Below, piece after piece: positions 1-15,698 of a stretch of DNA of 21,129 bases; position 1 is the first letter of the stretch; every line of letters begins with the position of its first letter. The stretch is from a virus, in the IMG/VR virus record IMGVR_UViG_3300024518_002267, positions 1-21,129 of that record. The stretch is one strand, 5' to 3'. The position numbers and the translations under genes were made by a program. Under the pieces are notes generated by a model. It did not search any database. It was not told the DNA's origin and saw only the letters and a program-made list of their open reading frames with translations.

Positions 1-213
1 TACTATGCCTTTATCTCCTTGTGCCTGAATAGACTCATCTAACGTAGCCTTAGCTGTATCCGAAAGAGAGTCCACAATACTTGAACCTGAGCCAAACAAG
101 AACTCCACAATAGGGTTACCATCATTGGCTTCAGCTAAAACCTCTAGGTCATCAATGCCTAGAACACTACCAGACTCCAGTTCAGATAAAATACGGTCTA
201 GCTTATCAGCCAA
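1..213 (-). CDS. Partial CDS, unknown; 5' end of the next late gene
   Basis: An open minus-strand frame runs from a TTG start at 213 off the left edge of the window, giving about 71 residues with no stop. The product is acidic and begins LADKLDRILSELESGSVLG, followed by a stretch rich in Asp, Glu, Ser and Gly. A GGAAG Shine-Dalgarno sequence lies about nine bases upstream of the TTG; an in-frame GTG at 222 is the alternative, but the SD would then touch the start codon. It overlaps the end of the giant gene by 8 bp, the tight packing seen throughout this arm. An acidic helical N-terminus downstream of a portal gene could suit a scaffold or virion-assembly protein, but that is only a guess from position. 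No domain is recognised. Confidence 0.6.
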   Translation of the reverse strand, partial: MADKLDRILSELESGSVLGIDDLEVLAEANDGNPIVEFLFGSGSSIVDSLSDTAKATLDESIQAQGDKGIV

Positions 214-3200
214 CGGGATCACCTTCCAGATATCGGTAGTAAATTGGGGAGAAAGAAATGTTATCGGCTAGGACACTGTATATCATTGAATCCCACAGGA
301 TGGCTATATCTTGATTGCTCTGGGCTGAGAGAGTAGCAGATCCTCCAAGTTGCTTTCGCCTATTAAGCTCAGCCTGAACAGTAGACCTCATATCTAGGTA
401 TTGGCGAACACCTTCCATATCTGCTCTGTCATCCATAACAGGAGATTTGGATATATCTCGTAAGGTCTTAATCCGAGTATCCCACTTGAGACCATCACGT
501 TGGTTGAAGTCTCTCCACCAGGCTGGGTACTTCTCTGCTATAGATTGAGTGAGTTGCCGCTTAAGGGCAGCAAGAGGTTCGGCTTCCTTAACACGAAGGC
601 TAGCAAGTCCTCTTGTTTTCATCTCCACTTCAATCATATCCATAGCCTTGATATACTCTGTCCATCCAAGCCTCTTGTCGGCTTCTTCGATAGTACCAGT
701 ATCTGGGTCCAAGGTCAAGATACGGTACCTACGCTCAGCTTCATCCCTGAACTTAGGATCATCGGTGGGAGGATTACTCAACTGCCATGCGAAAGCTGCT
801 GTGGAAAATTCACCCGTCGCCGAGTCCTCACCGATAATGAACCTACCGAACTCGGGGTACTTAGTAATCAAAGCCTCTACTGGTTCTCTAGCTTCATGGG
901 CTGTCAGTGTAGGCGGGATCCCTGTTATAGAACTAGTGCGGCTGAGGGTAAGGCTGATAAATTCACTACCAAACTGGTTAATGAAAATCTCATCCGCATC
1001 ACTAGCATAGTTCTCCTGGAGGTCACGGTATATATCTATATATGGCTTCAGTGGTGAATCGAATATAGGTTGAGCAGGTGAGGTAAAATTAGCCACTGTT
1101 TGGATTGTGAACAAGGCTCTTGCGGCTCCATGTACTTCATCAAGAGTAGGAGCATCACTACGGATACCTGCACGATATTCATAGTCCATCCATGATGCAA
1201 CATTGGCAAAATGACTTTCATAACTCTTGTCAGCCTCAGGGCCACCATACCAAGCTCGGAGTCTCTTGAGGGTTGGCGATAGTAACAGGTCTAATGAGTT
1301 GGCCTGAACACCATAAGGAAGGATAAACTTGAGGGATTCTTCAAGGTCTGGTCGATCCTTAACAATCTCATTCACTGGAGCTTGAACAATAGGGCCAAAA
1401 CCAGGCAACGGGTTATTGAGTATAAGGTTAAATGTAGTCTTACCAAACCTCATACCACCTTCAGCCAGATATTTTTGCCAGCCAGTGAGGCCTAAACTAT
1501 CCGACATCTTCTCACTCATCTGTATCTGGATGAATTCATTACCCTCATCATCCTTGACCATGAGACCAGCCTTATCAGGGGCTTGCCACAATAACTTAGC
1601 TCGACCGATGACGCTTGGGTCTTGGAGAGCAATCTTACCCCATACAGTAAGAACCTCTTCCCAAGCATTAAAGAATGGAAAAATAAATTTGAGGTTATCA
1701 GCGAACCTACTAGCTTCGGCTAAGTTATAAAGGTACTCATTCACCTGCTGTAGAGCAAAGGCTCTAGACTGTGTAGCCATTGAGGCTACTACAGCCTCGT
1801 CCAATACGTCTACACCTTGAGAGGCAAGGAGGTTACGTTGCCGCTTCATCTCTGCGGCATACACATGCTTAAAGAATGGCTGGCGACTCAAGGTATCAGT
1901 AGGTAGCCTACCATACAAATCGAATGAGGTAGATAATGTTTCCCTCATGAGTTTAATAACCTCACTATTACCGAGGGTCTGATCTACAATCTCAGCATGG
2001 ATGGTCTCAGGGCGCAATGCTTCATCCACAGAGGAAAGCATGGATTCGGTCACCTTGTTATTGAGGGCTCCATCAATGAGATCCTCGTTATAGCCCACCG
2101 TGTAATAATCAATGAGTTCATCCACATCATCAACCCATTTGGTGGTGTTACCCTCTCGCCATGGCATACGAGTGGCGTACTCTCTACCGTCTGAAGTCTT
2201 GAGCCACTTCCGTCCAGCGTCTTTTACAGCCTCTACAGTATCGTCTAGTAAGGATGCTTCCAACATAACCCTAGCCAATGGGTCTCTACCTATCTGATCC
2301 TGAAGGGCTCTGGTCCAAGCAGGGGTATAGGTCTTACTGCCCTTAGACACTGTGGACCATTGGCCTGTTGATTTCGATACAAGGTGGTCAAAGATACCTG
2401 ATTCAGTACGACCAAGAAGGAGCTCGAATTCCTGATTGATGGTTGCATTAGGCCCATTGAAAGCTGCTCTAGCAGAGGCAAGCTTTTCAGTACCAGCATC
2501 CAGAAGGTCATCATAAAACTCAGGGTCCATCATCCTTAGTCTTTGTGTACCTCTAGATACAGTACCAGCCGCTCTAGCTGACACATGGGTACCTATAGAA
2601 GCAGGAGCACCGAATAAGGTAGCTAGTCTTTGACCCCCACTAATACCTCTATCAAATGTAGCTAGAGCCTGTGGAACTTCCCCTACTTCTATAGCAGCAA
2701 GATGGTGTAGGAGACTACCCGTTTTTGCAAGGATACGGAGTTGCTCATCTGCAACGACTCTGATTGGCCAGCCTCCTCTAAGCAAAACGCTTGGCTTCCA
2801 TACATTGTAGAAGGATTCTAATAGTTCAATGGGGACATCTCTTGCGGACCCAAAACGAGTAGTCCATTTACCGACGGCACTGGACACTCTATTCAATTCC
2901 TTAACATCAGTAAGTGGGATCCAGTTCTGCAATTGTGTACCAAGGAGAGGCATGTGCATCTCTATAGTCTCACCAGTACCTTCATCATACCACCTAACTA
3001 GGTCCGTATCTGAGTCAGGTGAATAGCGGCGAGAGGCTAAAATTTTTCCAGCCGAGGTTCTACCACTACGGGCACTTTCCAAAGCCTTCTGAATTTGTTC
3101 CTTACTCATGCCTCCTCTACGAGCAGCAGCCTCAATTATTTCCTCATCCATAGCATGAGCAATACGAACCTTTTCCTGCTCAGAGACAGCGGACATCCAC

Positions 3201-5212
3201 TTCTCTCTCCAATACCCAGCCCGTTCTGAGCTAATATAGGTTTCACCTAAGAGGGAGTGGGCTTCTTCCATCTGTCTAACCACATGAACATCAGCATTGG
3301 TATCATGGACATTAACCCAAGGGTGAGGTCGTTTCTGATTTACAGACCTGAGAGGCCTAGCGAGAGAACTATTCTGATACCAATTGGAAGACCGTATAGA
3401 TTCCCTAGTTGTGGTCAATCGTGAATAACGGGGAGGAGCATCTAATACAGCTTTCTTGGACATAGCATCATACCAATTAGCCATCTCCATCTGATTGTAG
3501 ACTTGGTCAATCTCTTCCTGAACCGCTTCCTTAAGGATATCATAATCAGCCGTACCCATCTTGGCCTTATTAGACATCATACCGTGATATGCCATCTGCC
3601 TCTTTGCGTACACCTCTGGACCTAAGGCAAGGTCATCTAGTTCCTGAGTTAGAGCCTTAAGTCGAGCAAGGCTCTGAGGCGGAATGGTAACTGCATCTGG
3701 TATTTGAATGCCGAGACCCATAGCAGCTGCAAGGATAGTTCTTCCCTCAGCGTAACTAGTAGCATTAGACATAAGATCCGCAATAACATGGCCACCAGGC
3801 ACATTGTCGAAGTATACCCTACGGTTATAATCAGCGGTATTACCAACCATATCATTGATAGCCATGGTAGTTTTTTTATCACCGAGGACGTAATTAACTA
3901 AGTCTGTACCCCCATTCTTTTGGGCACGAATAGCCTGCATGTATTTGATGGCACCAGACTCACCACCAACCCCATAAGCTTCCTTAAGTCCCATTACCTC
4001 AGTATGTAAATCATTGAGGTGGTACAGATCCCCTGGCTCAATCGCTTGGCCATCAGGGGTATATAAGGTTTCATTCAAACGAGTAGCTGGTTTAAGGTGT
4101 TCAGGTACATCATCAAGATGTCGGGTAAAATCAAGTTCAGCCTGACTAAGTGGACGAGCGTTCTTTACTTTACCGCCAAGGCTATCTGTAACAGTAATGA
4201 GGTTTGCTTGCTCTGGGAACCCATCTGGACCGAATGATGGGGAACTGAAGTCATCGAGTACTACAGGGAGATCCTCTGGGTCTAGTTCTAGAAGTAGAGG
4301 CGCATCATCGGCGTTCTTGGCATACAGGTTGCTAGCGTAACGTAAAGCCTCATCTTCATCTGCCATCAAGTACAGGGCTCGGTCTCGTGTTGCATCCCCT
4401 AGCTCGGACTTCCGGACCACAGTATAAAGTGACCGACCTCTGGACCCTGTAATTTTCAAATCAAAGGCTGACTCTACACCCTCATCAACCCACTGTGGTA
4501 CAGCAGCATCCATGCCATAAGCCCTTTGAAACAGGGTAAGCTTTCTAGCTGTGTCAGGGCTCCATCTTGCTCTAGCTACCTTAACAGCTTTACCTGCTAA
4601 AATTTCAGGTTGGGTCCACCAACGAAGTGCGGCATCAATAACACCAGTAGAAAAGTTGAAGGCTATACCGCCCATAACTTCTTCCCTCTGGTAGTCAGGC
4701 ATATCCCACAATCCAAACAGATTACCTATCGTTATTTGACCAGGTGAGTTGAATTCCGTCCTCTTGTAAAGGTTACTAACATCAAGGGTAGCCTCTTCAC
4801 CGCCAGGTACAAGACTTGCAACCCCACCCAAAGCCGCACCACCTACACGAGATATGGATGCATCACCAGGCTCAAGGCCAGGGATTACACTATCAAGGCC
4901 TAGAGGAACTTGACCTAGAGCCGTTTGCATCTCATTGGAATAAATCAACTCACCTTGTTTAAAGACCTCACCAATAACGTCATCTATTGGTGTTACTTCC
5001 TTAACAAACCCACTAACCGTAGCAAGGCCTGTACTAGTAAATACATCCTCTAAGCCTTCTGAGACTTGACCAAAGCCCGTAGCAAAAGGATCACCAAGAC
5101 CTATCTCCTCATCAAGAGGGACCCGGGCAAGGTCAATAGCAAAGCCAATAGGAGCAGAGGCTATATCTGCTGCACCTTCAAATACCTTTTTGAATCTGTC
5201 CTGCCAACCCAT
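206..5212 (-). CDS. Giant virion-associated protein (1668 aa), function unknown
   Basis: This is the longest gene in the window, about a quarter of its length. It starts at ATG 5212 after a clear GGGGAGAGG Shine-Dalgarno, and its start shares one base with the TAA of the preceding gene. The N-terminus (about 1-200) is Gly/Ala-rich with weakly hydrophobic segments. Residues about 261-320 (SLYTVVRKSE onward, with LYLMADEDEALRYA) have a pattern loosely like an ADP-ribosyltransferase-type fold; I rate this weakly. Around residues 1165-1210 lies an aromatic stretch (FIFPFFNAWEEVLTVWGK) of a kind I associate with very large internal virion proteins of actinophages. Most of the protein looks helical and charged, without a signal peptide or clear transmembrane helix. 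Its place after the portal fits an ejected inner-virion protein or a polyvalent minor capsid protein. A role as tape measure is possible but the sequence is not obviously coiled-coil. Confidence 0.8.
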   Translation of the reverse strand: MGWQDRFKKVFEGAADIASAPIGFAIDLARVPLDEEIGLGDPFATGFGQVSEGLEDVFTSTGLATVSGFVKEVTPIDDVIGEVFKQGELIYSNEMQTALGQVPLGLDSVIPGLEPGDASISRVGGAALGGVASLVPGGEEATLDVSNLYKRTEFNSPGQITIGNLFGLWDMPDYQREEVMGGIAFNFSTGVIDAALRWWTQPEILAGKAVKVARARWSPDTARKLTLFQRAYGMDAAVPQWVDEGVESAFDLKITGSRGRSLYTVVRKSELGDATRDRALYLMADEDEALRYASNLYAKNADDAPLLLELDPEDLPVVLDDFSSPSFGPDGFPEQANLITVTDSLGGKVKNARPLSQAELDFTRHLDDVPEHLKPATRLNETLYTPDGQAIEPGDLYHLNDLHTEVMGLKEAYGVGGESGAIKYMQAIRAQKNGGTDLVNYVLGDKKTTMAINDMVGNTADYNRRVYFDNVPGGHVIADLMSNATSYAEGRTILAAAMGLGIQIPDAVTIPPQSLARLKALTQELDDLALGPEVYAKRQMAYHGMMSNKAKMGTADYDILKEAVQEEIDQVYNQMEMANWYDAMSKKAVLDAPPRYSRLTTTRESIRSSNWYQNSSLARPLRSVNQKRPHPWVNVHDTNADVHVVRQMEEAHSLLGETYISSERAGYWREKWMSAVSEQEKVRIAHAMDEEIIEAAARRGGMSKEQIQKALESARSGRTSAGKILASRRYSPDSDTDLVRWYDEGTGETIEMHMPLLGTQLQNWIPLTDVKELNRVSSAVGKWTTRFGSARDVPIELLESFYNVWKPSVLLRGGWPIRVVADEQLRILAKTGSLLHHLAAIEVGEVPQALATFDRGISGGQRLATLFGAPASIGTHVSARAAGTVSRGTQRLRMMDPEFYDDLLDAGTEKLASARAAFNGPNATINQEFELLLGRTESGIFDHLVSKSTGQWSTVSKGSKTYTPAWTRALQDQIGRDPLARVMLEASLLDDTVEAVKDAGRKWLKTSDGREYATRMPWREGNTTKWVDDVDELIDYYTVGYNEDLIDGALNNKVTESMLSSVDEALRPETIHAEIVDQTLGNSEVIKLMRETLSTSFDLYGRLPTDTLSRQPFFKHVYAAEMKRQRNLLASQGVDVLDEAVVASMATQSRAFALQQVNEYLYNLAEASRFADNLKFIFPFFNAWEEVLTVWGKIALQDPSVIGRAKLLWQAPDKAGLMVKDDEGNEFIQIQMSEKMSDSLGLTGWQKYLAEGGMRFGKTTFNLILNNPLPGFGPIVQAPVNEIVKDRPDLEESLKFILPYGVQANSLDLLLSPTLKRLRAWYGGPEADKSYESHFANVASWMDYEYRAGIRSDAPTLDEVHGAARALFTIQTVANFTSPAQPIFDSPLKPYIDIYRDLQENYASDADEIFINQFGSEFISLTLSRTSSITGIPPTLTAHEAREPVEALITKYPEFGRFIIGEDSATGEFSTAAFAWQLSNPPTDDPKFRDEAERRYRILTLDPDTGTIEEADKRLGWTEYIKAMDMIEVEMKTRGLASLRVKEAEPLAALKRQLTQSIAEKYPAWWRDFNQRDGLKWDTRIKTLRDISKSPVMDDRADMEGVRQYLDMRSTVQAELNRRKQLGGSATLSAQSNQDIAILWDSMIYSVLADNISFSPIYYRYLEGDPVG

Positions 5213-5892: not shown

Positions 5893-7601
5893 TATTGCCT
5901 CCCTTGGCCTAGTGCCAGTAGTTGTGATGGAGATGGTATGTTTGGTATTGCTGGAGGAGCTCCGGGTGCAGCGCCTGGCGGCAGAGGTGCACCTGGAGCA
6001 CCCTCACCCGGAGCGCCTAGTTCTTGAGGTTCGGGGAATGGGTTTTCATTGATCCACTTATATGGTTCCTTACCCTCTTGAATTGCTTTCATCCACTCAG
6101 TCATATGGTTAATGAGAGAAGCGGGAGCTTGTTGAGCTACCATTTCAAAGACAATCTTTTCCAGACGGTCAAGCAAAACCTTACGTCTAGTCTCAGATAC
6201 AGACTTGATATATGGCAAATTCTCCATAACAGTTTGTTCATCCACAAACCCTTGAGCAGCGGTTTGCATCAATTCGGTAAAGCCCTCAAGTCCACCAACT
6301 CCAATACCAAAATCAACAGCTACATTCCTATACCCCATGATGTCTTTACGGGGCGTATAGGTATCTTGGAATTGTTCACCCTTAGCTTTGCCATAGATTT
6401 CTTTCTTGACATTAGGATAAATCTTCTCATCAATGGCAAGAGCAGCAGCCTTAACAAATTCAACGTCAGGTTTCATGAGGTCCCAATAATCAAGAACCAT
6501 CTGAGTGGCATCTTGATTCAAGGCTTGTACTCCACGACCCGTAACTGTACCAGAGCCTGGAGCTTCACCTTGTAGGGATTCTGTATCATGGTTCATAACA
6601 CGAATCAAACGGTCAAGGACATCAAGGTCTCTTTCAATCTGGAGCTCTCCAGGTGGAGACAGGAATTCAGCATTACCTTGCTGGTCCATAATCTCAATGA
6701 CTCGTTCCTGGTGGTCAATGTTGTTAAGGCCTCTGATAACCAACCATGGCCAAACCACATTACCATTATAGGTAAGCTTCTGATTAAGGATCCTTATGTA
6801 TGCAAGCACCAACCCAATGTTCTGTTCAAACTGGCTCTGTCCCCCTAGCTGATTAGGCACATATTGTGAAGTCATACGCACCGGCACAAAGCCTAATTCA
6901 TGACCAACCTCAAAAACCTTTTCCTCGTTAACAAGGAGAGACATTACTTCTTTATCCATATAAGTGATAACAGATACAGGAGTAAGGCCGGTTGACATAC
7001 CTAAAGCTCTTTCTACCTCAGGTATACCATCATATGTATCAAGGACAGATGAGGCAGTCATAGATTCATTCAAGACCACGCTACCCATACTCATGGTATG
7101 CATTTGAGGTTCACTTAACATGCCATATGCAGTAGAGGATAGAGGTATGCTACCAGCACCTGGCTCAGGGAGAACAATACGAGGATCTTTGACAAAGTAC
7201 CTAGGGCCCTTAAGTACAGGATCTGGCATCACTCCGATAGCAGAAGCACCAAAGCCAACAAGATACCAAGAGTACCACTTCATAAGGCTATTGATACTGG
7301 ACTGATTATCGTAGTGAGTAAGGATATGTTCTACCTTGTCAGCCCTACGTTGAGTGATCCTCTGTAGACTGTTAGGCGGTACATGATTGGTAGGGATCTT
7401 ACCCACCATCTTTGAATAGCGATCCCAACCTAACTTGATCCAGTTAGCTACCTTAGGGACTTCACCTCTACGAAACTCAGCCGGCCATAATTGGTCATAA
7501 TTTCCATGGTATACATCAAGAAGGATATCCCAACGAGAATGAGCTTCTCGCCAATAGTCAAGGAGCTCCATTCGATGATTGAGGATCTGTTTCTCGTCCA
7601 C
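5892..7601 (-). CDS. Portal protein
   Basis: Probable portal: the dodecameric ring at the capsid vertex through which DNA is packaged and ejected. The call rests on size (569 residues from the GTG chosen here), an acidic/aromatic N-terminal helical region (YWREAHSRWDILLDVYHGNY), a beta-rich middle (YFVKDPRIVLPEPGAG, then FVPVRMTSQYVPNQLGG), and a helical crown-like part with a long helix ending in LEKIVFEMVAQQAPAS. The last about 41 residues are Gly/Pro/Ala-rich and probably disordered. A longer reading uses TTG at 7613, but GTG at 7601 has GGAG six bases upstream and shares one base with the preceding TAG (TAGTG), the same junction style as its neighbours, so I prefer it. The fold assignment is by pattern, not alignment. 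Confidence 0.8.
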   Translation of the reverse strand: MDEKQILNHRMELLDYWREAHSRWDILLDVYHGNYDQLWPAEFRRGEVPKVANWIKLGWDRYSKMVGKIPTNHVPPNSLQRITQRRADKVEHILTHYDNQSSINSLMKWYSWYLVGFGASAIGVMPDPVLKGPRYFVKDPRIVLPEPGAGSIPLSSTAYGMLSEPQMHTMSMGSVVLNESMTASSVLDTYDGIPEVERALGMSTGLTPVSVITYMDKEVMSLLVNEEKVFEVGHELGFVPVRMTSQYVPNQLGGQSQFEQNIGLVLAYIRILNQKLTYNGNVVWPWLVIRGLNNIDHQERVIEIMDQQGNAEFLSPPGELQIERDLDVLDRLIRVMNHDTESLQGEAPGSGTVTGRGVQALNQDATQMVLDYWDLMKPDVEFVKAAALAIDEKIYPNVKKEIYGKAKGEQFQDTYTPRKDIMGYRNVAVDFGIGVGGLEGFTELMQTAAQGFVDEQTVMENLPYIKSVSETRRKVLLDRLEKIVFEMVAQQAPASLINHMTEWMKAIQEGKEPYKWINENPFPEPQELGAPGEGAPGAPLPPGAAPGAPPAIPNIPSPSQLLALGQGRQ

Positions 7602-10600
7602 TAACCGCTCCAATCACTCATTGTAGTAGTAGCTCTAGGTTGATCGTCGCCCCCAAGCTCTGGGCCTAACCCGTTTAAAAGAGCTTGAAGTAGACCCGGT
7701 TCAATTGCCACTGGCCCCGGTGCTACTGTAGGGTCATTGGCTGAGGTTAGCTGTTGCATGATGGCTGGTATTATATCCTGAGTTGATCCTGCACCTAAAT
7801 CTACAGTCGGATCATACGCTAAAACGAGTTGGTTTGCAACATCAGGATAAATAACAATACCTCCACCTATAGCAGGATCAACACCTACAAGAAGCGTTTG
7901 TAGTAAGGCAGGAGTTATAAACACTGCCCCAGGTGCTACCACAGGATCATATGTGACAACCAATTGCTGTACCAAACCGGGGACTATATCTACCACATAA
8001 GTAAGGGTAGGGTCTATAGCGATCAGTAATTCCTGAACCAAACCTGGGTGAAGATTCATATCCAATTGAGGCAAGAAAGTAACTATCAACTGAGACATTA
8101 AGGCGGGACTAATATCCACAGAACCCGTTGTCAGAGTTGGATTAAAGGCTATCAGGAGTTGTTGTACTAATGCAGGACTAATGTTTACAGCCCCTACAGC
8201 TATTGAGGGGTCAAAGGTATTAACCAGTTCCTGAGCCAACCCCGGTGTAATATCCGCTACATAGGTAAGAGTTGGATCAAGGCCCACTATCAACTGTTGG
8301 ATCAAAGTAGGTATGATGTCCGCAGTAGTTGTGAGAGTCGGATCATAGGATTGTACCAACCTCTGAGCTAGTGCTGGTGATATATCCACGCTCCCAGGGG
8401 TGACAGTGGGATCAAATCCAAGAGCTAACTGCTGAGCCAAGCTAGGCGATATATCAACCGGCCCTGTAGTTAGGGTTGGCAAGAAGGTTTGAATGAGTTG
8501 AACAGCCAAGGAAGGAGACACGCTTACTGTGGTAGTTAGTGAAGGATCAAAAGCTACCGCCAACTGTTGCAATAAGCCTGGAGTAATATCCACTAACCCG
8601 GGAGTAACTGTCTGAGACAAAGCCGTGATAAGTTGTGAAGCTATGGCTGGAGTAATATCCAAGGAGGAAGATGGCGTATAGGTAATCTCAAGTCGAGGCT
8701 CAGTGTATGTTACGGACTCATACATATGAACGGCTTTAACGTCCGTATTAGTGTAAGCATCAGGGTCAAGAACAAACTGGATATACTCTGTATCAAGTGG
8801 CCCATATGAATCTACTAGCTCTTGAATAATGGCCTTTATATCTGGAGATGTAAGGTCAGCATCACCTCCAGCAGTATCCAGTATCCACTTTACTGTGGCT
8901 GTAGTGGGCGTAATGCCATCAAGGGTTGCCCACGATGTAGGAGCAGAGGGGTTATCGGAATCATCACCAACAACATCAATTTCCACATCAGTAGTAGCTC
9001 CGTCTACCCACATCTTGAGAACGGCTGAATCTATGGTTGCACCTACAAGATCATCTGTAAGCTGGAACCTGAAATACATATGAGATGCGTCACCATCATC
9101 ACCAACGGTCTCTACTGTACCAGTAGCACTAAAGGTAGTTGGTGAAAATCCAAACCCATCATTCCCACCAGCATTAATTGCCAGATTCATTGAGGTGATA
9201 GCACTAACAGAAGGTGCAAAAGTAGCTATCAGTTGGGCCTTTAAAGCGGGTGAAATATCAACAGCCCCAACTGAAGCAACAGGGGCAAAGGCGGCTGTTA
9301 AGCTGGAGGCTAAACTCGGAGAAATGTCCTGTGCAGTTACACCTGCAAGCGTATCGAGTGCGACACCTGTGATCCCGACACGGTTGGCAGGGAAGTCTCT
9401 CGTCTGATCACCTGTGCCGGATTCGAGTCGCATATCGAGCGACATGTACTCCGTAGACCCCAACGCTTTCGCTGCGATACCTGCGGCACGGCCACCGAAC
9501 TTCAACCCCGTAGTCGATTGATCGCCACGGTGAAACGACAACCCCGACCCGTACTGAACAATAGTTCCTGTTCGTGACCACCGGAAATGATGGGTGACAC
9601 GGGTAGAGTTTGTGGTTGACGTTTGTGTGGTGAACCATGCACCGAACAGCAGCATGTCGTGGTCGTCGGCGGTGCCGTTGATCCGGTCAGTGTTCGTAAC
9701 CGTCGAGTGAATACCAAGGTCGTCCTCGTCCTCGGCGTCCTGTGGGAACACACCCGTTGTCTGACCGTCCCTGGCTGTGGAGTGCCTGGTGCGAATGTAG
9801 TCTGCGGTGTCGGGCAGTTTGATGGCGGTGAGTTGCACTTCCTCCATCGAATACGAAGTCGAGGTTTCACCGACAGCCACCGTATCAACCGTCAACACAT
9901 CGTTCGCAGCCACATCAAGAATGACCGGCAACGCCGCCCACGACTCGATTGAACCGTCCGAACCGCGGGACATGTTCAAACCCCACGTACCACCGTTGAT
10001 ATTGGCATCGTTGAGCATCAACTTGTGGATGGCACCGTTACGGGTCGTGCCTGATGTCTGCCCGAATGTGTTCAAGATGACTAGGTAATGGCCCGCCGAT
10101 TTCAGCGTGACATCTGTTCCGGACACCCATTCGGCAACTGCCGAGTCAGTCTCCACGTCCTGCGTGTCAAACGAGATGGTCGTAAAAGCTGCATCAGCGG
10201 GGATACCGACACCCGTACCCTGCGCCGATGTCAACGACTGAGCAGCGGCCCTACGGACCTGTATCCAATCAGCCCCGTCATCCAACCGTATAATCTGGAT
10301 GCCACACGAATCCGCTATCTGGTCAGCCAACGCAACAGACGTGTCACCGAAGTTTTGGACCCACACTGTTACGTCATCTGCCGACGAACCAACAACCGTA
10401 TGGTCAACATACGAAGCCGTAATAACGTGGCATTCATCTGCGGAACCTGAGTCACGCAGATACCCGGATGCGTTACCTGAAATGCCAGTCAGGTTCGTGC
10501 CACCGACCTTGACTTGGGTACGAACAACAGCACGGTTGTTGTTCCCAAGGTCGATACCGTTCCACGATGTTGTGGTGAGTATCAGGTAGCGGCCCGTGTT

Positions 10601-10756
10601 CTGAATACGGTACGCCTGATTGCCTGACTGCCTCGTCACATCAGCAGATGTGTCAACCTCGGTGTCGTAGGTGAGTTGCTGCTCCGTAGCGAGGCTGTTA
10701 TTCGATATGAGACTCGTTGCAGGAGCACGGGCTGTGTAAATAGAGCCAACAGCCAT
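7601..10756 (-). CDS. Large repeat-bearing fibre/adhesin-like structural protein (1051 aa)
   Basis: A modular, beta-rich protein. Residues about 1-470 contain what look like three related beta-sandwich units, resembling C1q/TNF-type jelly rolls (for example AGHYLVILNTFGQTSG and ANDVLTVDTVAVGETS). Residues 477-519 hold two copies of a 23-residue repeat. Residues about 524-696 resemble a DNRLRE/CBM96-type carbohydrate-binding domain (SPDIKAIIQELVDSYGP, ending PRLEITY). Residues 700-1032 are fifteen further tandem repeats with core P-[AG]-L-x-Q-x-L-hydrophobic-x-x-[FY]-[DN]-P. This architecture suits a receptor-binding fibre or capsid-surface adhesin. The first 476 codons are richer in GC and CpG than the rest, suggesting separate origins. 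The ATG shares a base with the preceding TAA. There is no signal peptide, as expected of a virion protein. Confidence 0.8.
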   Translation of the reverse strand: MAVGSIYTARAPATSLISNNSLATEQQLTYDTEVDTSADVTRQSGNQAYRIQNTGRYLILTTTSWNGIDLGNNNRAVVRTQVKVGGTNLTGISGNASGYLRDSGSADECHVITASYVDHTVVGSSADDVTVWVQNFGDTSVALADQIADSCGIQIIRLDDGADWIQVRRAAAQSLTSAQGTGVGIPADAAFTTISFDTQDVETDSAVAEWVSGTDVTLKSAGHYLVILNTFGQTSGTTRNGAIHKLMLNDANINGGTWGLNMSRGSDGSIESWAALPVILDVAANDVLTVDTVAVGETSTSYSMEEVQLTAIKLPDTADYIRTRHSTARDGQTTGVFPQDAEDEDDLGIHSTVTNTDRINGTADDHDMLLFGAWFTTQTSTTNSTRVTHHFRWSRTGTIVQYGSGLSFHRGDQSTTGLKFGGRAAGIAAKALGSTEYMSLDMRLESGTGDQTRDFPANRVGITGVALDTLAGVTAQDISPSLASSLTAAFAPVASVGAVDISPALKAQLIATFAPSVSAITSMNLAINAGGNDGFGFSPTTFSATGTVETVGDDGDASHMYFRFQLTDDLVGATIDSAVLKMWVDGATTDVEIDVVGDDSDNPSAPTSWATLDGITPTTATVKWILDTAGGDADLTSPDIKAIIQELVDSYGPLDTEYIQFVLDPDAYTNTDVKAVHMYESVTYTEPRLEITYTPSSSLDITPAIASQLITALSQTVTPGLVDITPGLLQQLAVAFDPSLTTTVSVSPSLAVQLIQTFLPTLTTGPVDISPSLAQQLALGFDPTVTPGSVDISPALAQRLVQSYDPTLTTTADIIPTLIQQLIVGLDPTLTYVADITPGLAQELVNTFDPSIAVGAVNISPALVQQLLIAFNPTLTTGSVDISPALMSQLIVTFLPQLDMNLHPGLVQELLIAIDPTLTYVVDIVPGLVQQLVVTYDPVVAPGAVFITPALLQTLLVGVDPAIGGGIVIYPDVANQLVLAYDPTVDLGAGSTQDIIPAIMQQLTSANDPTVAPGPVAIEPGLLQALLNGLGPELGGDDQPRATTTMSDWSG
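7661..8659 (-). repeat. Fifteen tandem copies of a 23-aa (69-bp) protein repeat
   Basis: Residues 700-1032 of the 1051-aa protein. Representative units begin DISPALAQRLVQSYDPTLT, NISPALVQQLLIAFNPTLT and DITPGLLQQLAVAFDPSLT. Each has a Pro-capped stretch of about 12-14 amphipathic residues ending in an aromatic-Asp/Asn-Pro motif, then a short Thr/Gly/Val linker. Copies differ at many codons, so the array is old rather than a recent expansion. I do not recognise it as a named repeat family. Confidence 0.85.
9200..9328 (-). repeat. Two additional copies of the 23-aa repeat
   Basis: Residues 477-519 of the 1051-aa protein (DISPSLASSLTAAFAPVAS and DISPALKAQLIATFAPSVS). They are separated from the main array by the carbohydrate-binding-like domain. 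The first copy begins at the point where base composition changes. Confidence 0.75.
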
Positions 10757-12036
10757 TACAAACTTACCTTATAGTTCTCTGGCACAAGTGTACCATCCCC
10801 AAAGATAGATCCTGTGACATCAATAGACCCGCAGTTACCTCCGTCCCAAAACTCTCCCCCTTCTTCGGCATAGGTTCTAGTGTTAGTTACTGAGTGGTCC
10901 GAGCAAACAGAGTATTGACCCCATACATAACCTGCGGTATTGTATACCTGAAGCGGACTTATAGCGGCTTGCTGGTATACCACAACATTGTCATACTCAC
11001 AGAATGATCCACCAGCGGTAGCAAACCCTACTTGACCACAATTTAGGAAAGAGGAGTTCTTTACGGTAACATTAGCCCCATCACCATCTCCCATGATGAC
11101 ACCAGTGCCAGAGTCAGAAGTCCATATTACTGAGTCCTGTCCATCAGAGGTTATTTGATCTGTGGTTCGAGCCCCCTCAACCTGAACATCATCCACTATC
11201 CCATTACTGGAAGCGAAGTGGGAAAGACCATCGAAAAAGTTTCCATATCTAGCCTTCAAGTGTGTTATATCAAACCCATTCACACCATTAAGTTGGTATA
11301 CGTTGCAATCATTCTCATTGGTAAAGTAGCTATAAGGGCCACGATCCTCTTCCCAATCACCAACCCAACCAGCAAACTCCTTAGCTATATTCTCTATACG
11401 GATATACTCGATGGTGATATTCGTGGAATTGTAAGCATAAACAAGACCCATAGTACAACCACGTGTATCAATGCGGCGAATGGTTATGTTATTACAATTG
11501 ATTAGGGTAATTGGTCTACCGCCTGATGCCCCACCTGTCCTATAGAAATCCTCAAAGGAGAGATTTTGAATAGTCTGAGTATCCACACCATCTAAAACAA
11601 TGGGAGTTAACTGAGGTGTATAGGACATAAAGGCATCTGGCCACAACCCTGCACCCGATACTGTGATAACAGGGTTAAATGCCGCTATCACACTCTGAGC
11701 CAAACTAGGCTGAATCTCTTGTGTACCCGTAGGGTTAACAATCAGAGGTTCAAGAGCAGTTATTAAGGATTGAGCTATCTCTGGATAAGTAGCCAGAGTT
11801 GGAGGTGAAACAATGGGGTCAAATGCCTCTATCAGCATATCCACTAAATCTGGATACGCCTCAGAGGAAAAAGGTCTGTACCTCTTTACACCAGTACTAC
11901 GACCTAAGATATCAAGAGCAGACGGATCCCCAATGATACCCATAAGGATGGCTCTTACTTGATCCCGTTGCTCCCACTTACCAGGTACCATTCTGCCACG
12001 GTGTTGACCTAACCACTTATCTCGTTGGCTCGGCAT
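10756..12036 (-). CDS. Tailspike-like protein: 23-aa repeats plus right-handed beta-helix
   Basis: 426 residues. Residues about 60-128 hold three copies of the 23-residue repeat seen in the next gene (YPDLVDMLIEAFDPIV, YPEIAQSLITALEPLIV, IQPSLAQSVIAAFNPVI). From about residue 150 to 410 the sequence looks like a pectin-lyase-type right-handed beta-helix, with short Asn/Asp/Gly-bounded strands such as ITLINCNNITIRRID and NITIEYIRIENI, and an Asp-rich loop (IMGDGDGANVTVKNS). Such helices form phage tailspikes and polysaccharide lyases or depolymerases; catalytic residues cannot be assigned here. Its stop shares a base with the ATG of the 1051-aa gene (TAATG). The shared repeats suggest the two proteins assemble on the same virion scaffold. 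GAGG lies four bases before the ATG. Confidence 0.8.
   Translation of the reverse strand: MPSQRDKWLGQHRGRMVPGKWEQRDQVRAILMGIIGDPSALDILGRSTGVKRYRPFSSEAYPDLVDMLIEAFDPIVSPPTLATYPEIAQSLITALEPLIVNPTGTQEIQPSLAQSVIAAFNPVITVSGAGLWPDAFMSYTPQLTPIVLDGVDTQTIQNLSFEDFYRTGGASGGRPITLINCNNITIRRIDTRGCTMGLVYAYNSTNITIEYIRIENIAKEFAGWVGDWEEDRGPYSYFTNENDCNVYQLNGVNGFDITHLKARYGNFFDGLSHFASSNGIVDDVQVEGARTTDQITSDGQDSVIWTSDSGTGVIMGDGDGANVTVKNSSFLNCGQVGFATAGGSFCEYDNVVVYQQAAISPLQVYNTAGYVWGQYSVCSDHSVTNTRTYAEEGGEFWDGGNCGSIDVTGSIFGDGTLVPENYKVSL
11653..11859 (-). repeat. Three copies of the 23-aa repeat at the N-terminal side of the beta-helix protein
   Basis: Residues about 60-128 of the 426-aa protein. The core [YI]-x-P-x-[LI]-x-x-x-[LV]-I-x-A-[FL]-[DEN]-P matches the repeats of the following gene. 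Confidence 0.75.
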
Positions 12037-12046
12037 GGTACCTCAC

Positions 12047-12493
12047 TCAGATTTGAAGGATACCTGAAGCATTCCATGTTACTGTAATGTCTCCACCGTT
12101 CGGTGTGACTGGGAGCCCCGTTGTCGCAGAGTCCCACGTTACAATCAGGGCTGCGTTAGCTGGCGTTGCATTGTAGTGGTACAATGTCAAGTAATCAGCC
12201 GCATCACCTGTGATGGTATTGAATGTCACATTAGCGGCATCAAACACACCGGTGGCAACAACACCCACAGTCTTGGACAGAAGTGGGACATCGGATGAGT
12301 CTGCCCTATCTGCTACCACAACAGCCGTATCTACAGACCCGTAATTACTCGTAGCGGCTACAATAGCGCCTGAGTCCGTCTGGTCAAGAAGTGCAATGTC
12401 AATGGCATCAGCATCAAAGTCCACAGTGGTTAGTGGTGCTGACGGAGTACCTAGCTGGCCATCCCTAAAATCATCATGTACTACAGTAGCCAT
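12047..12493 (-). CDS. Beta-rich small structural protein (148 aa)
   Basis: 148 residues, Asp/Thr/Val/Ala-rich and predicted all-beta. The C-terminus TTGLPVTPNGGDITVTWNAS resembles the ending of a family of small uncharacterised proteins in the structural modules of many environmental tailed phages, often near decoration or tail genes; this link is from memory. A GGGGGAG Shine-Dalgarno lies seven bases before the ATG. The start shares a base with the stop of the 72-aa gene (TAATG), and the next gene begins 10 bp after the stop. A capsid decoration or tail role is plausible but unproven. Confidence 0.75.
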   Translation of the reverse strand: MATVVHDDFRDGQLGTPSAPLTTVDFDADAIDIALLDQTDSGAIVAATSNYGSVDTAVVVADRADSSDVPLLSKTVGVVATGVFDAANVTFNTITGDAADYLTLYHYNATPANAALIVTWDSATTGLPVTPNGGDITVTWNASGILQI

Positions 12494-12711
12494 TAGTTAT
12501 CTCCCCCAGCAAGAGCCGCTGCCATAGCCACCCTATCTTCGTCACTCATAGCGTCAATCTTGGCTTTCGCCTTATCCTCAGCTATAAGCTTGTTGAGTTG
12601 TACCGAGATGGCTCTGGCTCTGGATCTTGACTTGTCAAGGTATTTACCCTTCTCAAGTTGTAAGGTCTCAAGCTCAGCCTCAAGCTCAGCAATCTTCCTA
12701 GTTCTTGGCAT
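12493..12711 (-). CDS. Small coiled-coil protein (72 aa)
   Basis: 72 residues. The N-terminal half is a clear charged heptad-like helix (IAELEAELETLQLEKGKYL), followed by a basic segment (KSRSRARAISVQLNKL) and an Ala-rich C-terminus. It starts inside the end of the preceding gene (14-bp overlap) with GGAG seven bases upstream, and ends in a TAATG junction with the next. It could be a small assembly chaperone or bundling protein; no family is recognised. Confidence 0.7.
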   Translation of the reverse strand: MPRTRKIAELEAELETLQLEKGKYLDKSRSRARAISVQLNKLIAEDKAKAKIDAMSDEDRVAMAAALAGGDN

Positions 12712-13072
12712 CCACTTGCTCCTTTACTGGGTCAAATGCCTGGATCAGTTTCTTTGCTATAGGTATCTGAAGTGTCTGGGTAGGTGGACTGTTGACAGTA
12801 TTAGAGGTCTCAAACCCAGCCCTATCGTCAAGGGCAGACAACCTCTCATATACGGTCTTAGATACAATAATAGTACCTTCATCATCAAGCTGGAGGTGAT
12901 AGGTCTTTACATCATGTGGTACCATACAGGACGAACAAATAGGGAGCTTATAGTTGTGAGGGTTGGGTATTGGACGTTTTTGATCCCTCACAACTAGAAG
13001 CACCCCTTTTAACGTCTTGTGACGAATCCGAATCCCCTGTGCCTTAGGCTTGAGTTGAGGGTCTAGGGTCAT
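12698..13072 (-). CDS. Unknown protein with CxxC pair and one 23-aa-repeat-like C-terminus
   Basis: 124 residues. The basic N-terminus contains a small beta-like region and a CSSC pair (residues 46-49) with a nearby His53, a possible partial metal site. The C-terminus (about 102-117, QIPIAKKLIQAFDPVK) matches the core of the repeat found three times and seventeen times in the two large genes downstream. No good Shine-Dalgarno precedes ATG 13072, but an in-frame stop lies just upstream and no other start is available. Function unknown; the shared motif suggests it belongs to the same structure. Confidence 0.65.
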   Translation of the reverse strand: MTLDPQLKPKAQGIRIRHKTLKGVLLVVRDQKRPIPNPHNYKLPICSSCMVPHDVKTYHLQLDDEGTIIVSKTVYERLSALDDRAGFETSNTVNSPPTQTLQIPIAKKLIQAFDPVKEQVDAKN

Positions 13073-13442: not shown

Positions 13443-15698
13443 TTAGTCTTGCCTGCGTCTGTAGTTACGAACGGATGAGTGCCCCATACCTGTGGGTTCA
13501 CTCTCTTTACCAACCATGTAATCAGGAAGCGAGTCACGGTATATATGTTGCCTAGGGGTACTGGCCCTTGATACCCGCATCGAATCGGGGAGGATTAACC
13601 GGTTGAAGTCAAAGAACCAGTACCCCATAACCATGTCATTCGTCTGTGAATCAGGATACTCAGTCAATTCCTTAGCAAACTCATTGACGGTTACTCTTGT
13701 AGGAAGGTCATTCTGGTCAAACGGCAAATCTACCTTACCCAGTCGGAACCTACCTGGAAGACTGCCCTCTACACCATGCTCAGGGTCAGCCTTATTCCTA
13801 TGGGTCTCATGCCCCTTGATTGTGGTGTGGTGTGTCTGCATCCACTGGTTGACCCACTTGTGCTGGAAGATATATCGCTGGGCAGCGGCCTGTTCAATGA
13901 TCCACAGAGATATCGGCCAACCCATCGCTTTAGCCTGTTCCTGCCAGTCTTGAGCTATCCCTGTGAATACCCTTCGTTTGATGTCATAGTCAAGGAACCC
14001 TCCAGAAGTCAGGCGGGCTCGCACAAGGTTGATGAGATAATCCTTATCATTTGCCGTATCATAGATCCACCACTGGACTGACCACCAATTCTGAGCAGAC
14101 GGGTCTAGCGTAGCGATAGAGAAGCAGTCAGCAGGATCCACATCTTCTGGTATCTGTAGCAGGCGCCTCTCATAGTTGTAGCAACCGGGGTAGGTGATGT
14201 TGTCATCATCGACACCCCCTGTTAGCCATACCTTCTGTACGAGGTTGTCACTCGTCTCCTCATCCGACTGCTGATACGTGAGGTTGAATTTTCTCGGGTC
14301 AGCGGCTTGCACCTTACGCAGGTGCGTATAAGAGAATCGCTTAGGATCAAGCACACATTCAATGTGGTCACTGTTCTTAATGGAGAGAAGGTTCTGGCAG
14401 GCTTGTTCATCATGGGCCGGGAACTTGTAGTAGCGGTATACTTTCCTACTCTTACGCATTCCACCGGATATATCTGGCGTGGCTAATTCAGAGTAGTCCT
14501 TGCCATACTTATCTACAAGCTCCCGTTCCAATTCTTCCCGAACCTGCTGCATCTCTTCCTCAGTAAACTGTGAGGTAACCTCGTTGAGAGTAGCCTCATC
14601 AACATCATCATCCGTCTGATACGTGAGGTTCTTACAGTGGGCATAGATGTCAAACTTACCAAACCTTGTACCGATCAAGGCAACGAGGCCCCCAGGCTCA
14701 CATCTCGATTCAGCCTCAGAAAACCACCACTCAGTAGTTGCCTCACGTTGCTCAGCCGTTTTAGAATTGTTCTTATCGGCAAGATCGTCCCACAGGTTGA
14801 TATCGAATCGCCCACCGAGAAAGCCCATATCTTGAGAGAGTGAGGCAACAGTAGACTCCTTCTCACCGGTCAAGAACGCCGTCTGGATATCACTCAGGAT
14901 CTGGTGGATATCGTCCTCTGGGTTATTGAGGCGTCTTTTGATTTCTCCAGCCGTCGGATCAAACCCCGCTAGAGCCAGCTTGTAGTCCATGGTTGCTTCA
15001 TGCCCCTCCACTCCATCGACAATGAACCGGTCAGCCCTCCATTCTTCTGGCTCCAGCGGTTTAAACCTGCCATAGTAAATATTCAGGAGTACGTTCTTCT
15101 CCAACGTATTACGCAGCCGGCGTGTGTACTTAGAGGACTGCCCAGTCGTGCGTGCCCCCAAAGCAATCCGAATATCACGGTTCCGGGTAATCAACCAGCC
15201 GGGAAAGTCATGCGTTATTGTGGTTGACTTACCCCCACCCGGCGGCGTATTCACAATACCCTTGATGACTTCAGACTCCACAGTACCAGCAGTAGCTTGT
15301 CCGGACTCCCACCAAGCCATCAAAATCTGGACCATCTCAATCTGCCAAGGAATGTGGCGTCTACCGAGCATCAAGTTACGCCAGTACCCAAATTCATGCC
15401 ACGCTTGTATAGCCTGCGGATGCACCAACTGATCGTGGTTTCTCTTAGGATCTGGGTACCCCCCATCAGGTCCAGAATCCATAGCGATTCTCTTAGCAGT
15501 CTCAGTAGGGCTTGTACCCCCGTAAGCCTCATTCATAGAGACCATCAACCTACGTATCGTTCCCCGCCCAACTCCCAAGAGCTCCCCAAGCCGGTAAGGA
15601 TTTCTACCCTTCTTGACTTCCTCATAGAACCATGCCTTTGCTTCCACAGAAAGACGTTTCCCTTTCTGATGGAATGGCATTGGTCTTGACTCTGGCAT
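13443..15698 (-). CDS. Terminase large subunit (ATPase-nuclease packaging motor)
   Basis: 751 residues, longer than the usual 450-600. Walker A is TPPGGGKST (151-159), Walker B is in FDINLWDDLAD (298-308), and the coupling motif is LIGTRF (341-346). The RNase H-like nuclease domain shows its acidic residues at D532 (ATLDPSA), E602 (WIIEQAAAQ) and D688 (QTNDMV). It cuts and pumps phage DNA through the portal. The N-terminal about 60 residues carry an HTH-like segment (NPYRLGELLGVGRGTIRRLM) that resembles small-terminase DNA-binding domains; no separate small terminase gene is visible. The ATG at 15698 has no clear Shine-Dalgarno. The 5' end overlaps a forward promoter for the small gene at 15752. 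Confidence 0.92.
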   Translation of the reverse strand: MPESRPMPFHQKGKRLSVEAKAWFYEEVKKGRNPYRLGELLGVGRGTIRRLMVSMNEAYGGTSPTETAKRIAMDSGPDGGYPDPKRNHDQLVHPQAIQAWHEFGYWRNLMLGRRHIPWQIEMVQILMAWWESGQATAGTVESEVIKGIVNTPPGGGKSTTITHDFPGWLITRNRDIRIALGARTTGQSSKYTRRLRNTLEKNVLLNIYYGRFKPLEPEEWRADRFIVDGVEGHEATMDYKLALAGFDPTAGEIKRRLNNPEDDIHQILSDIQTAFLTGEKESTVASLSQDMGFLGGRFDINLWDDLADKNNSKTAEQREATTEWWFSEAESRCEPGGLVALIGTRFGKFDIYAHCKNLTYQTDDDVDEATLNEVTSQFTEEEMQQVREELERELVDKYGKDYSELATPDISGGMRKSRKVYRYYKFPAHDEQACQNLLSIKNSDHIECVLDPKRFSYTHLRKVQAADPRKFNLTYQQSDEETSDNLVQKVWLTGGVDDDNITYPGCYNYERRLLQIPEDVDPADCFSIATLDPSAQNWWSVQWWIYDTANDKDYLINLVRARLTSGGFLDYDIKRRVFTGIAQDWQEQAKAMGWPISLWIIEQAAAQRYIFQHKWVNQWMQTHHTTIKGHETHRNKADPEHGVEGSLPGRFRLGKVDLPFDQNDLPTRVTVNEFAKELTEYPDSQTNDMVMGYWFFDFNRLILPDSMRVSRASTPRQHIYRDSLPDYMVGKESEPTGMGHSSVRNYRRRQD

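What the first reader, a model, noticed from the sequence alone, without database searches (positions are those of the whole stretch)
7661..12769. A 23-residue repeat family shared by three neighbouring structural genes
Seen: a repeat with core P-[AG]-L-x-Q-x-L-hydrophobic-[FY]-[DN]-P occurs about 17 times in the 1051-aa protein, three times in the 426-aa beta-helix protein and once at the C-terminus of the 124-aa protein. All lie in one stretch of the late operon. I know no named family with this pattern. Inference: it is a docking module, such as a helical clip, that joins fibre, tailspike and a small adaptor, with copy number setting length or valency.
Basis: partly seen in the sequence, partly recalled or inferred. 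Interest (0 to 1): 0.78.

Follow-up and report, generated by a model that had tools for sequence, protein, structure and literature searches.

The report
Phage fibre repeat, 23-residue tandem unit
Neighbouring virion proteins of an uncultured short-tailed phage share a 23-amino-acid building block that turns out to be a divergent form of a widespread, hardly studied repeat of phage tail/adhesion proteins, whose number of copies changes by whole units and probably sets the length of a fibre or spacer.

Summary
The repeat is real. In-register copies: 17 in the 1051-aa protein, 3 in the 426-aa protein, and one weaker copy at the C-terminus of the 124-aa protein. It is not orphan. Allowing P-x9-[FY]-x-P-T-[VIL] at a 23-residue period retrieves 55 IMG/VR contigs of in-frame arrays but only two contigs of one MAG in 85,000 prokaryote genomes. 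25 of 29 arrays match PHROG phrog_8501, 'minor tail protein'; no Pfam or NCBIfam family fits. The window's form is a divergent branch. A bridging contig, L049, carries both styles in two adjacent proteins, with homologues of the window's 148-aa and 124-aa proteins and terminase. Arrays travel with phrog_644, the 148-aa protein's family and a relative of Bxb1's 'tail wing arm': 32 of 40 array records against 0 of 10 controls. Near-identical phages differ by exactly one unit. AlphaFold2 gives beta-solenoid-like, not helical, models of modest confidence, a known artefact risk for repeats. Best reading: a length-setting spacer/stalk of phage adhesion proteins. The proposed helical docking clip is not supported; 'copy number sets length' is.

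The parts
7646..8665 (-). main array in p1051, residues 698-1037: 15 units of mostly 22-23 residues, consensus V-D-I-S-P-[AGS]-L-x-Q-Q-L-x-x-x-F-D-P-T-[LV]-T-x-G
   Evidence: 37% identity over 286 aa to the L049 array
9197..9334 (-). two further units of p1051 (residues 475-520), separated from the main array by a different, presumably beta-sandwich, domain
7601..10756 (-). 1051-aa array protein: N-terminal non-repeat domains (residues 1 to ~470), 2 units, domain ~525-695, 15 units, short tail
   Evidence: no Pfam family above its cut-off
11656..11868 (-). three units in p426, residues 57-127, between the N-terminal leader and the beta-helix domain
   Evidence: 24.7, 13.4, 13.2 bits
10756..12036 (-). 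426-aa protein, parallel beta-helix (tailspike-like) after the units
   Evidence: Pfam Beta_helix E 4.1e-5, just below its cut-off; weak tblastn to Cellulophaga phage phi17:2
12722..12781 (-). probable single unit at the C-terminus of p124 (residues 98-117, TQTLQIPIAKKLIQAFDPVK)
   Evidence: 12.0 bits, 3 of 300 whole-set shuffles; absent from the L049 homologue
12698..13072 (-). 124-aa protein, homologue in L049 (33% identity, E 1e-14)
12047..12493 (-). 148-aa protein, phrog_644 family; relative of Bxb1 tail wing arm gp31; gene that accompanies the arrays in other phages

Best explanation
The repeat is a divergent branch of a phage-specific family of ~23-residue tandem units (PHROG phrog_8501 type). 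Shown: the copies, their register, their kinship to the widespread form, their linkage to phrog_644, and whole-unit changes in number. Inferred: consecutive units stack into an elongated, probably beta-structured rod that acts as a spacer or stalk within adhesion proteins of the virion. It holds globular or beta-helix domains away from the particle, and each unit adds a fixed increment of length. In this phage one module has been copied into a large fibre-like protein (p1051), a tailspike-like protein (p426) and possibly a small neighbouring protein (p124).
For: Copies and register. 55 viral contigs with in-frame arrays. Match to phrog_8501 'minor tail protein' in 25 of 29 arrays, in phiT46-1 gp23 (4e-15) and weakly in the window array alone (1e-3). 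At positions NOT fixed by the search pattern, the window units agree with the family better than all but 1 of 5000 column permutations. An HMM of the other viruses only scores p1051 at E 2.5e-8, with every shuffle far lower. Bridging locus L049 with conserved neighbours. phrog_644 lies on the same strand within ~4 kb in the loci where both are seen, in 32 of 40 array records and 0 of 10 controls. phrog_644 relatives are Bxb1 tail wing arm gp31 (PDB 9d93) and minor tail proteins of the Corndog-like phages; the upper baseplate protein Corndog gp60 (PMC13252515) is the presumed counterpart. Exact one-unit (23-aa) difference between close relatives. Units sit between domains in p1051, p426 and L049.
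Against: No structure or virion proteomics. AlphaFold2 confidence is modest (mean pLDDT 61 and 70), and AF2 is known to invent beta-solenoids for repeats (PMC11795689). In some relatives (L017 group) the protein is almost only array, so the array there may itself be the adhesin and not a spacer. The two AF2 models differ in detail.
Confidence: 0.55

Rival explanations
1. Docking module: units of p1051, p426 and p124 pair with each other and join fibre, tailspike and adaptor.
For: Three neighbouring proteins share the module; the p124 copy sits at a free C-terminus and resembles p426's third copy (TQ..Q..xA...I.AF.PV). L049 also has two adjacent array proteins.
Against: In 18 of the 20 loci scanned, at most one gene has units. 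The p124 homologue in L049 lacks the unit although its two array proteins are present. Arrays of 10-20 units are more than a clip needs.
Confidence: 0.15
2. Receptor-binding array: each unit or groove of the solenoid binds surface glycan, so the array is itself a multivalent adhesin.
For: In the L017 group the protein is an 18-residue leader plus array and a short tail. The family-array model resembles tailspike and depolymerase beta-helices (Kp32gp38 Z 16.6, rmsd 2.8, 223 residues; HK620 Z 14.7).
Against: Fold resemblance is generic and comes from a modest-confidence model. The most conserved residues (P, P, T, L, G) look structural and no conserved charged or catalytic pattern is seen.
Confidence: 0.2
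3. Flexible or poorly ordered proline-rich spacer: the units form no regular rod and only tether domains.
For: Proline every ~11 residues, variable 20-26 spacing, moderate pLDDT.
Against: Strict hydrophobic pattern at -4, -2, 2, 10, 14 and invariant spacing of the two prolines argue for a packed core.
Confidence: 0.1

Closest known systems
PHROG phrog_8501 (133 positions, 'minor tail protein')
   Same: Same 23-residue register: hydrophobic at -2, P at 0, aromatic at 10, P at 12, T-V at 13-14. 25 of 29 arrays match.
   Different: The window array matches only weakly (E 0.07 for the whole protein, 1e-3 for the array alone). The window units have L at 6, A at 9, Q-Q at 4-5 and D-P instead of T-N-x-x-T-F-Y-x-P.
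Mycobacterium phage phiT46-1 gp23 (minor tail protein) with gp24
   Same: N-terminal array of 23-residue units (IRPTSVASRVAVGTPTITTGPLT), phrog_8501 at 4e-15, and a phrog_644-like gene next door.
   Different: Infects Mycobacterium abscessus; array precedes unrelated C-terminal domains; low identity (~30%).
Gordonia phage Gibbles gp37 (minor tail protein)
   Same: N-terminal array (ITPPRANMVIRAYAPTV...). The window HMM finds 9 in-register units and no shuffle scores as high.
   Different: Not matched by phrog_8501; different C-terminal domain.
Pseudanabaena phage Pam2 gp68
   Same: Array of the ALFTNTNSFYSxxV form, near a phrog_644 gene annotated 'minor tail subunit'.
   Different: 143-kb siphovirus of a cyanobacterium (PMC9382816).
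Bxb1 tail wing arm gp31 (PDB 9d93) and Corndog gp60 (upper baseplate protein)
   Same: Relatives of the accompanying 148-aa protein, which place the module in tail/adsorption apparatus.
   Different: They are not the repeat. The window phage appears short-tailed, with no tape-measure gene seen in the relative.

Membership tests
phrog_8501-type repeat family | ~23-residue period with P at 0 and P-T-[VIL] at 12-14, aromatic at 10 | tested here: met
   spacing 20-26, mode 23
phrog_8501-type repeat family | agreement at positions not used to find the relatives (V/I at -4/-2, L at 2, G at 17) | tested here: met
   1 of 5000 permutations as good; HMM without window units E 2.5e-8
phrog_8501-type repeat family | significant match to the PHROG profile itself | tested here: inconclusive
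   E 0.07 whole protein, 1e-3 array alone; unambiguous only through L049 (5.8e-11)
phrog_8501-type repeat family | genomic neighbour phrog_644 | tested here: met
   p148 is phrog_644, E 2.1e-15; linkage
virion tail/adhesion protein | present in the particle | not testable with these tools
   metagenomic contig; no proteomics
beta-solenoid / parallel beta-helix fold | strands stacked in coils of about 20-25 residues | tested here: inconclusive
   AF2 all-beta, pLDDT 61/70, pTM 0.56/0.57; VIA Z 16.6 for the family array, but no Foldseek E below 0.35; known AF2 bias (PMC11795689)
helical clip / docking module | amphipathic helix in the core P-x-L-x-Q-x-L-x-x-x-F | tested here: inconclusive
   AF2 gives strand over AQQLALGF; simple propensities nearly equal (helix 1.12, strand 1.15); family form lacks the helix pattern
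LRR, KH, tape-measure or other named Pfam repeat | match above the curated cut-off | tested here: not met
   Pfam: KH_6 22.6 bits against cut-off 27, nothing else convincing; NCBIfam none

The most novel reading that the evidence does not exclude
The units form a new phage fibre element that both stacks within one chain and pairs between neighbouring virion proteins. Array length and inter-protein attachment would then be controlled by the same 23-residue module, and phages would retune reach or valency by gaining or losing whole units.
Probability: 0.12. Interest if true: 0.75.

Novelty: new variant of a known kind. Interest (0 to 1): 0.45.

Why it matters
The repeat is common in phage contigs, almost absent from the prokaryote genomes scanned, genetically tied to a tail-wing/baseplate protein family, and without a Pfam entry, a structure or, as far as I could find, a paper describing it. 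It is a concrete candidate for how phages set the length of adhesion fibres. Because relatives occur in cultured phages (phiT46-1, Gibbles, Pam2), the idea can be tested directly.

Tried and rejected
Direct relatives of p1051, TerL and p1668 in IMG/VR by peptide words: only the near-identical 48.5-kb contig of the same virus, so no comparison there. One viral scan was wasted on a mis-spaced pattern (diagnosed). A two-unit L..L..[FY] pattern returned low-complexity PFF/PPS proteins (L008-L012, L014, L015) besides the window's own relative: rejected. A single-unit Q..[FY]DP pattern gave three unrelated internal proteins (L074-L076), rejected, and confirmed L049. Streptococcus phage Dp-1 tape-measure hit and phrog_5493 tape-measure match: hydrophobic helical periodicity with another pattern, rejected as kin. 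KH_6 and LPD38 Pfam matches are below cut-off. PDB sequence searches with p1051, L063, phiT46-1 gp23 and the A3 profile found no structure of the repeat. Foldseek against PDB gave no significant match for either model; in BFVD only low-TM matches, mostly to unnamed proteins. Literature searches for the repeat or for phrog_8501 found nothing. A last scan with the 148-aa alignment found only the same two contigs. tblastn of the L049 array against cultured phages found nothing, and that of L046 found only its lectin-like domain.

Full report
What is there. The window is a 21,129-base linear IMG/VR record, 99.93% identical to part of a 48.5-kb contig of the same virus. On the - strand the late genes run TerL (751 aa), 121, 124, 72, 148, 426, 1051 aa, portal, 166 and 1668 aa. 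The longer contig adds a major head protein (phrog_1328, with tblastn relatives mostly among Pseudomonas phages, including Bruynoghevirus), a probable internal virion protein and a possible lysin by sequence, and no tape measure that I could see. I therefore infer a short-tailed phage.

The observation. A relaxed pattern finds 17 units in p1051, 3 in p426 and 1 in p124, all sharing the register P0, L2, L6, F10, P12. A matrix trained on p1051 alone recovers the three p426 copies far above almost all shuffles. The p124 copy is the weakest: 12.0 bits with the p1051+p426 matrix, 3 of 300 shuffles of all non-array proteins reach it, and it is missed by the family HMM at 6 bits. There is no DNA-level tandem repetition, so the units are old and diverged.

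What it is related to. tblastn gave weak hits to actinophage minor tail proteins. Reading these showed arrays with the same period and the same P-x11-P-T spacing. A degenerate DNA pattern built on that spacing, three times in phase, retrieved 55 other viral contigs plus the known relative, essentially all with open-frame arrays of the form xVTLxPALFTNTNTFYSPTVxxG. The same pattern hit two contigs of one Cytophagales MAG in the species-level genome collection. Because the pattern fixed five positions, I tested the others: the window units fit the family at the free positions better than 4999 of 5000 column permutations, and an HMM made without window units scores p1051 at E 2.5e-8 against shuffles. 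PHROG phrog_8501, a 133-position 'minor tail protein' family, is this repeat: it matches 25 of 29 arrays and phiT46-1 gp23 at 4e-15, but the window array only at 1e-3. The window thus carries a divergent branch.

The bridge. Contig L049 (10.2 kb) has two adjacent array proteins (503 and 853 aa) whose units mix ITPGLADQTTVAYDPTV with window-like PDLTQQLVTAYDPT. It also has homologues of p148 (60% identity), p124 (E 1e-14) and TerL (E 1e-13) around them. The p124 homologue shows no unit: its similarity stops just before the place where the window protein has one.

The neighbour. p148 is phrog_644. That family is found in 18 of 19 array records first tested and 14 of 21 shorter ones, against 0 of 10 records without arrays. 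The controls are few, and were contigs that other patterns had retrieved, not a matched sample. Where both lie in one locus they are on the same strand within about 4 kb. p148 matches Bxb1 'tail wing arm gp31' in PDB 9d93 (E 4e-5) and minor tail proteins of Corndog-like phages; gp60 is the upper baseplate protein of Corndog in a 2026 preprint (PMC13252515). That the hits correspond to Corndog gp60 is my inference from gene number and cluster.

Copy number. In a group of near-identical contigs L033 lacks exactly one 23-residue unit, with flanks 96-99% identical to relatives. In this group the protein is little more than the array.

Structure. AlphaFold2 on p1051 residues 690-1051 with 15 related arrays gave an all-beta model, pLDDT 61, pTM 0.56. 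On a family array with 28 others it gave pLDDT 70, pTM 0.57, also beta. VIA-align puts the family model near parallel beta-helices (Kp32gp38 Z 16.6, rmsd 2.8, 223 aligned), and the window model near solenoids (HMW1 Z 14.6, rmsd 3.9, 261 aligned; a curli chain scores Z 20.6 but at rmsd 10.6). Foldseek found nothing significant in the PDB. AF2 is documented to give unrealistic beta-solenoids for repeats (PMC11795689), and the first alignment consists largely of the beta-like form, so the fold is a hypothesis. What I can say is that a helical clip gets no support.

Mechanism. Units lie between domains: beta-helix in p426, globular domains in p1051 and L049. They come in long runs, vary by whole units, and accompany a tail-wing/baseplate family. 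The simplest account is an extendable spacer or stalk in adhesion proteins. A docking role is not excluded in this phage, where two or three neighbours share the module, but it is not the family's general pattern: 18 of the 20 loci scanned have units in at most one gene, with the caution that some are fragments and that a few overlap or represent the same virus.

Verdict. The function remains inferred.

Noticed in passing
window 12047-12493 (-) and loci: phrog_644 occurs once or as two tandem copies (records G005, G006, G027, G030, G038) next to the arrays, and links a short-tailed phage to the tail wing/baseplate proteins of long-tailed mycobacteriophages.
   Followed up: partly
window 13443-15698 (-), TerL N-terminus; L049 793-2976 (-): The large terminase has an N-terminal stretch that looks like a helix-turn-helix (NPYRLGELLGVGRGTIRRLM); the L049 terminase instead begins with cysteine-rich motifs (CAVCGDEVKPPRKKYCSAACAA). 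Possible fused small-terminase or DNA-binding parts.
   Followed up: no
window 206-5212 (-): 1668-aa protein of phrog_10618 (unknown function), together with phrog_8200, 8424, 7578 and 11667 proteins of the same virus, looks like an uncharacterised internal virion/ejection set.
   Followed up: no
L077 6120-6869 (+): A glycosyltransferase-like gene (phrog_34859, phrog_1574) sits among the head genes of the near-identical contig.
   Followed up: no
L071, L072: The only prokaryote-genome hits of the array pattern are two contigs of one Cytophagales MAG; prophage or binned virus not distinguished.
   Followed up: no
L008-L012, L014, L015: Viral contigs encode proteins ending in PFFPPSFGPFFPPSFG low-complexity tails, found by accident with a repeat pattern.
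   Followed up: no
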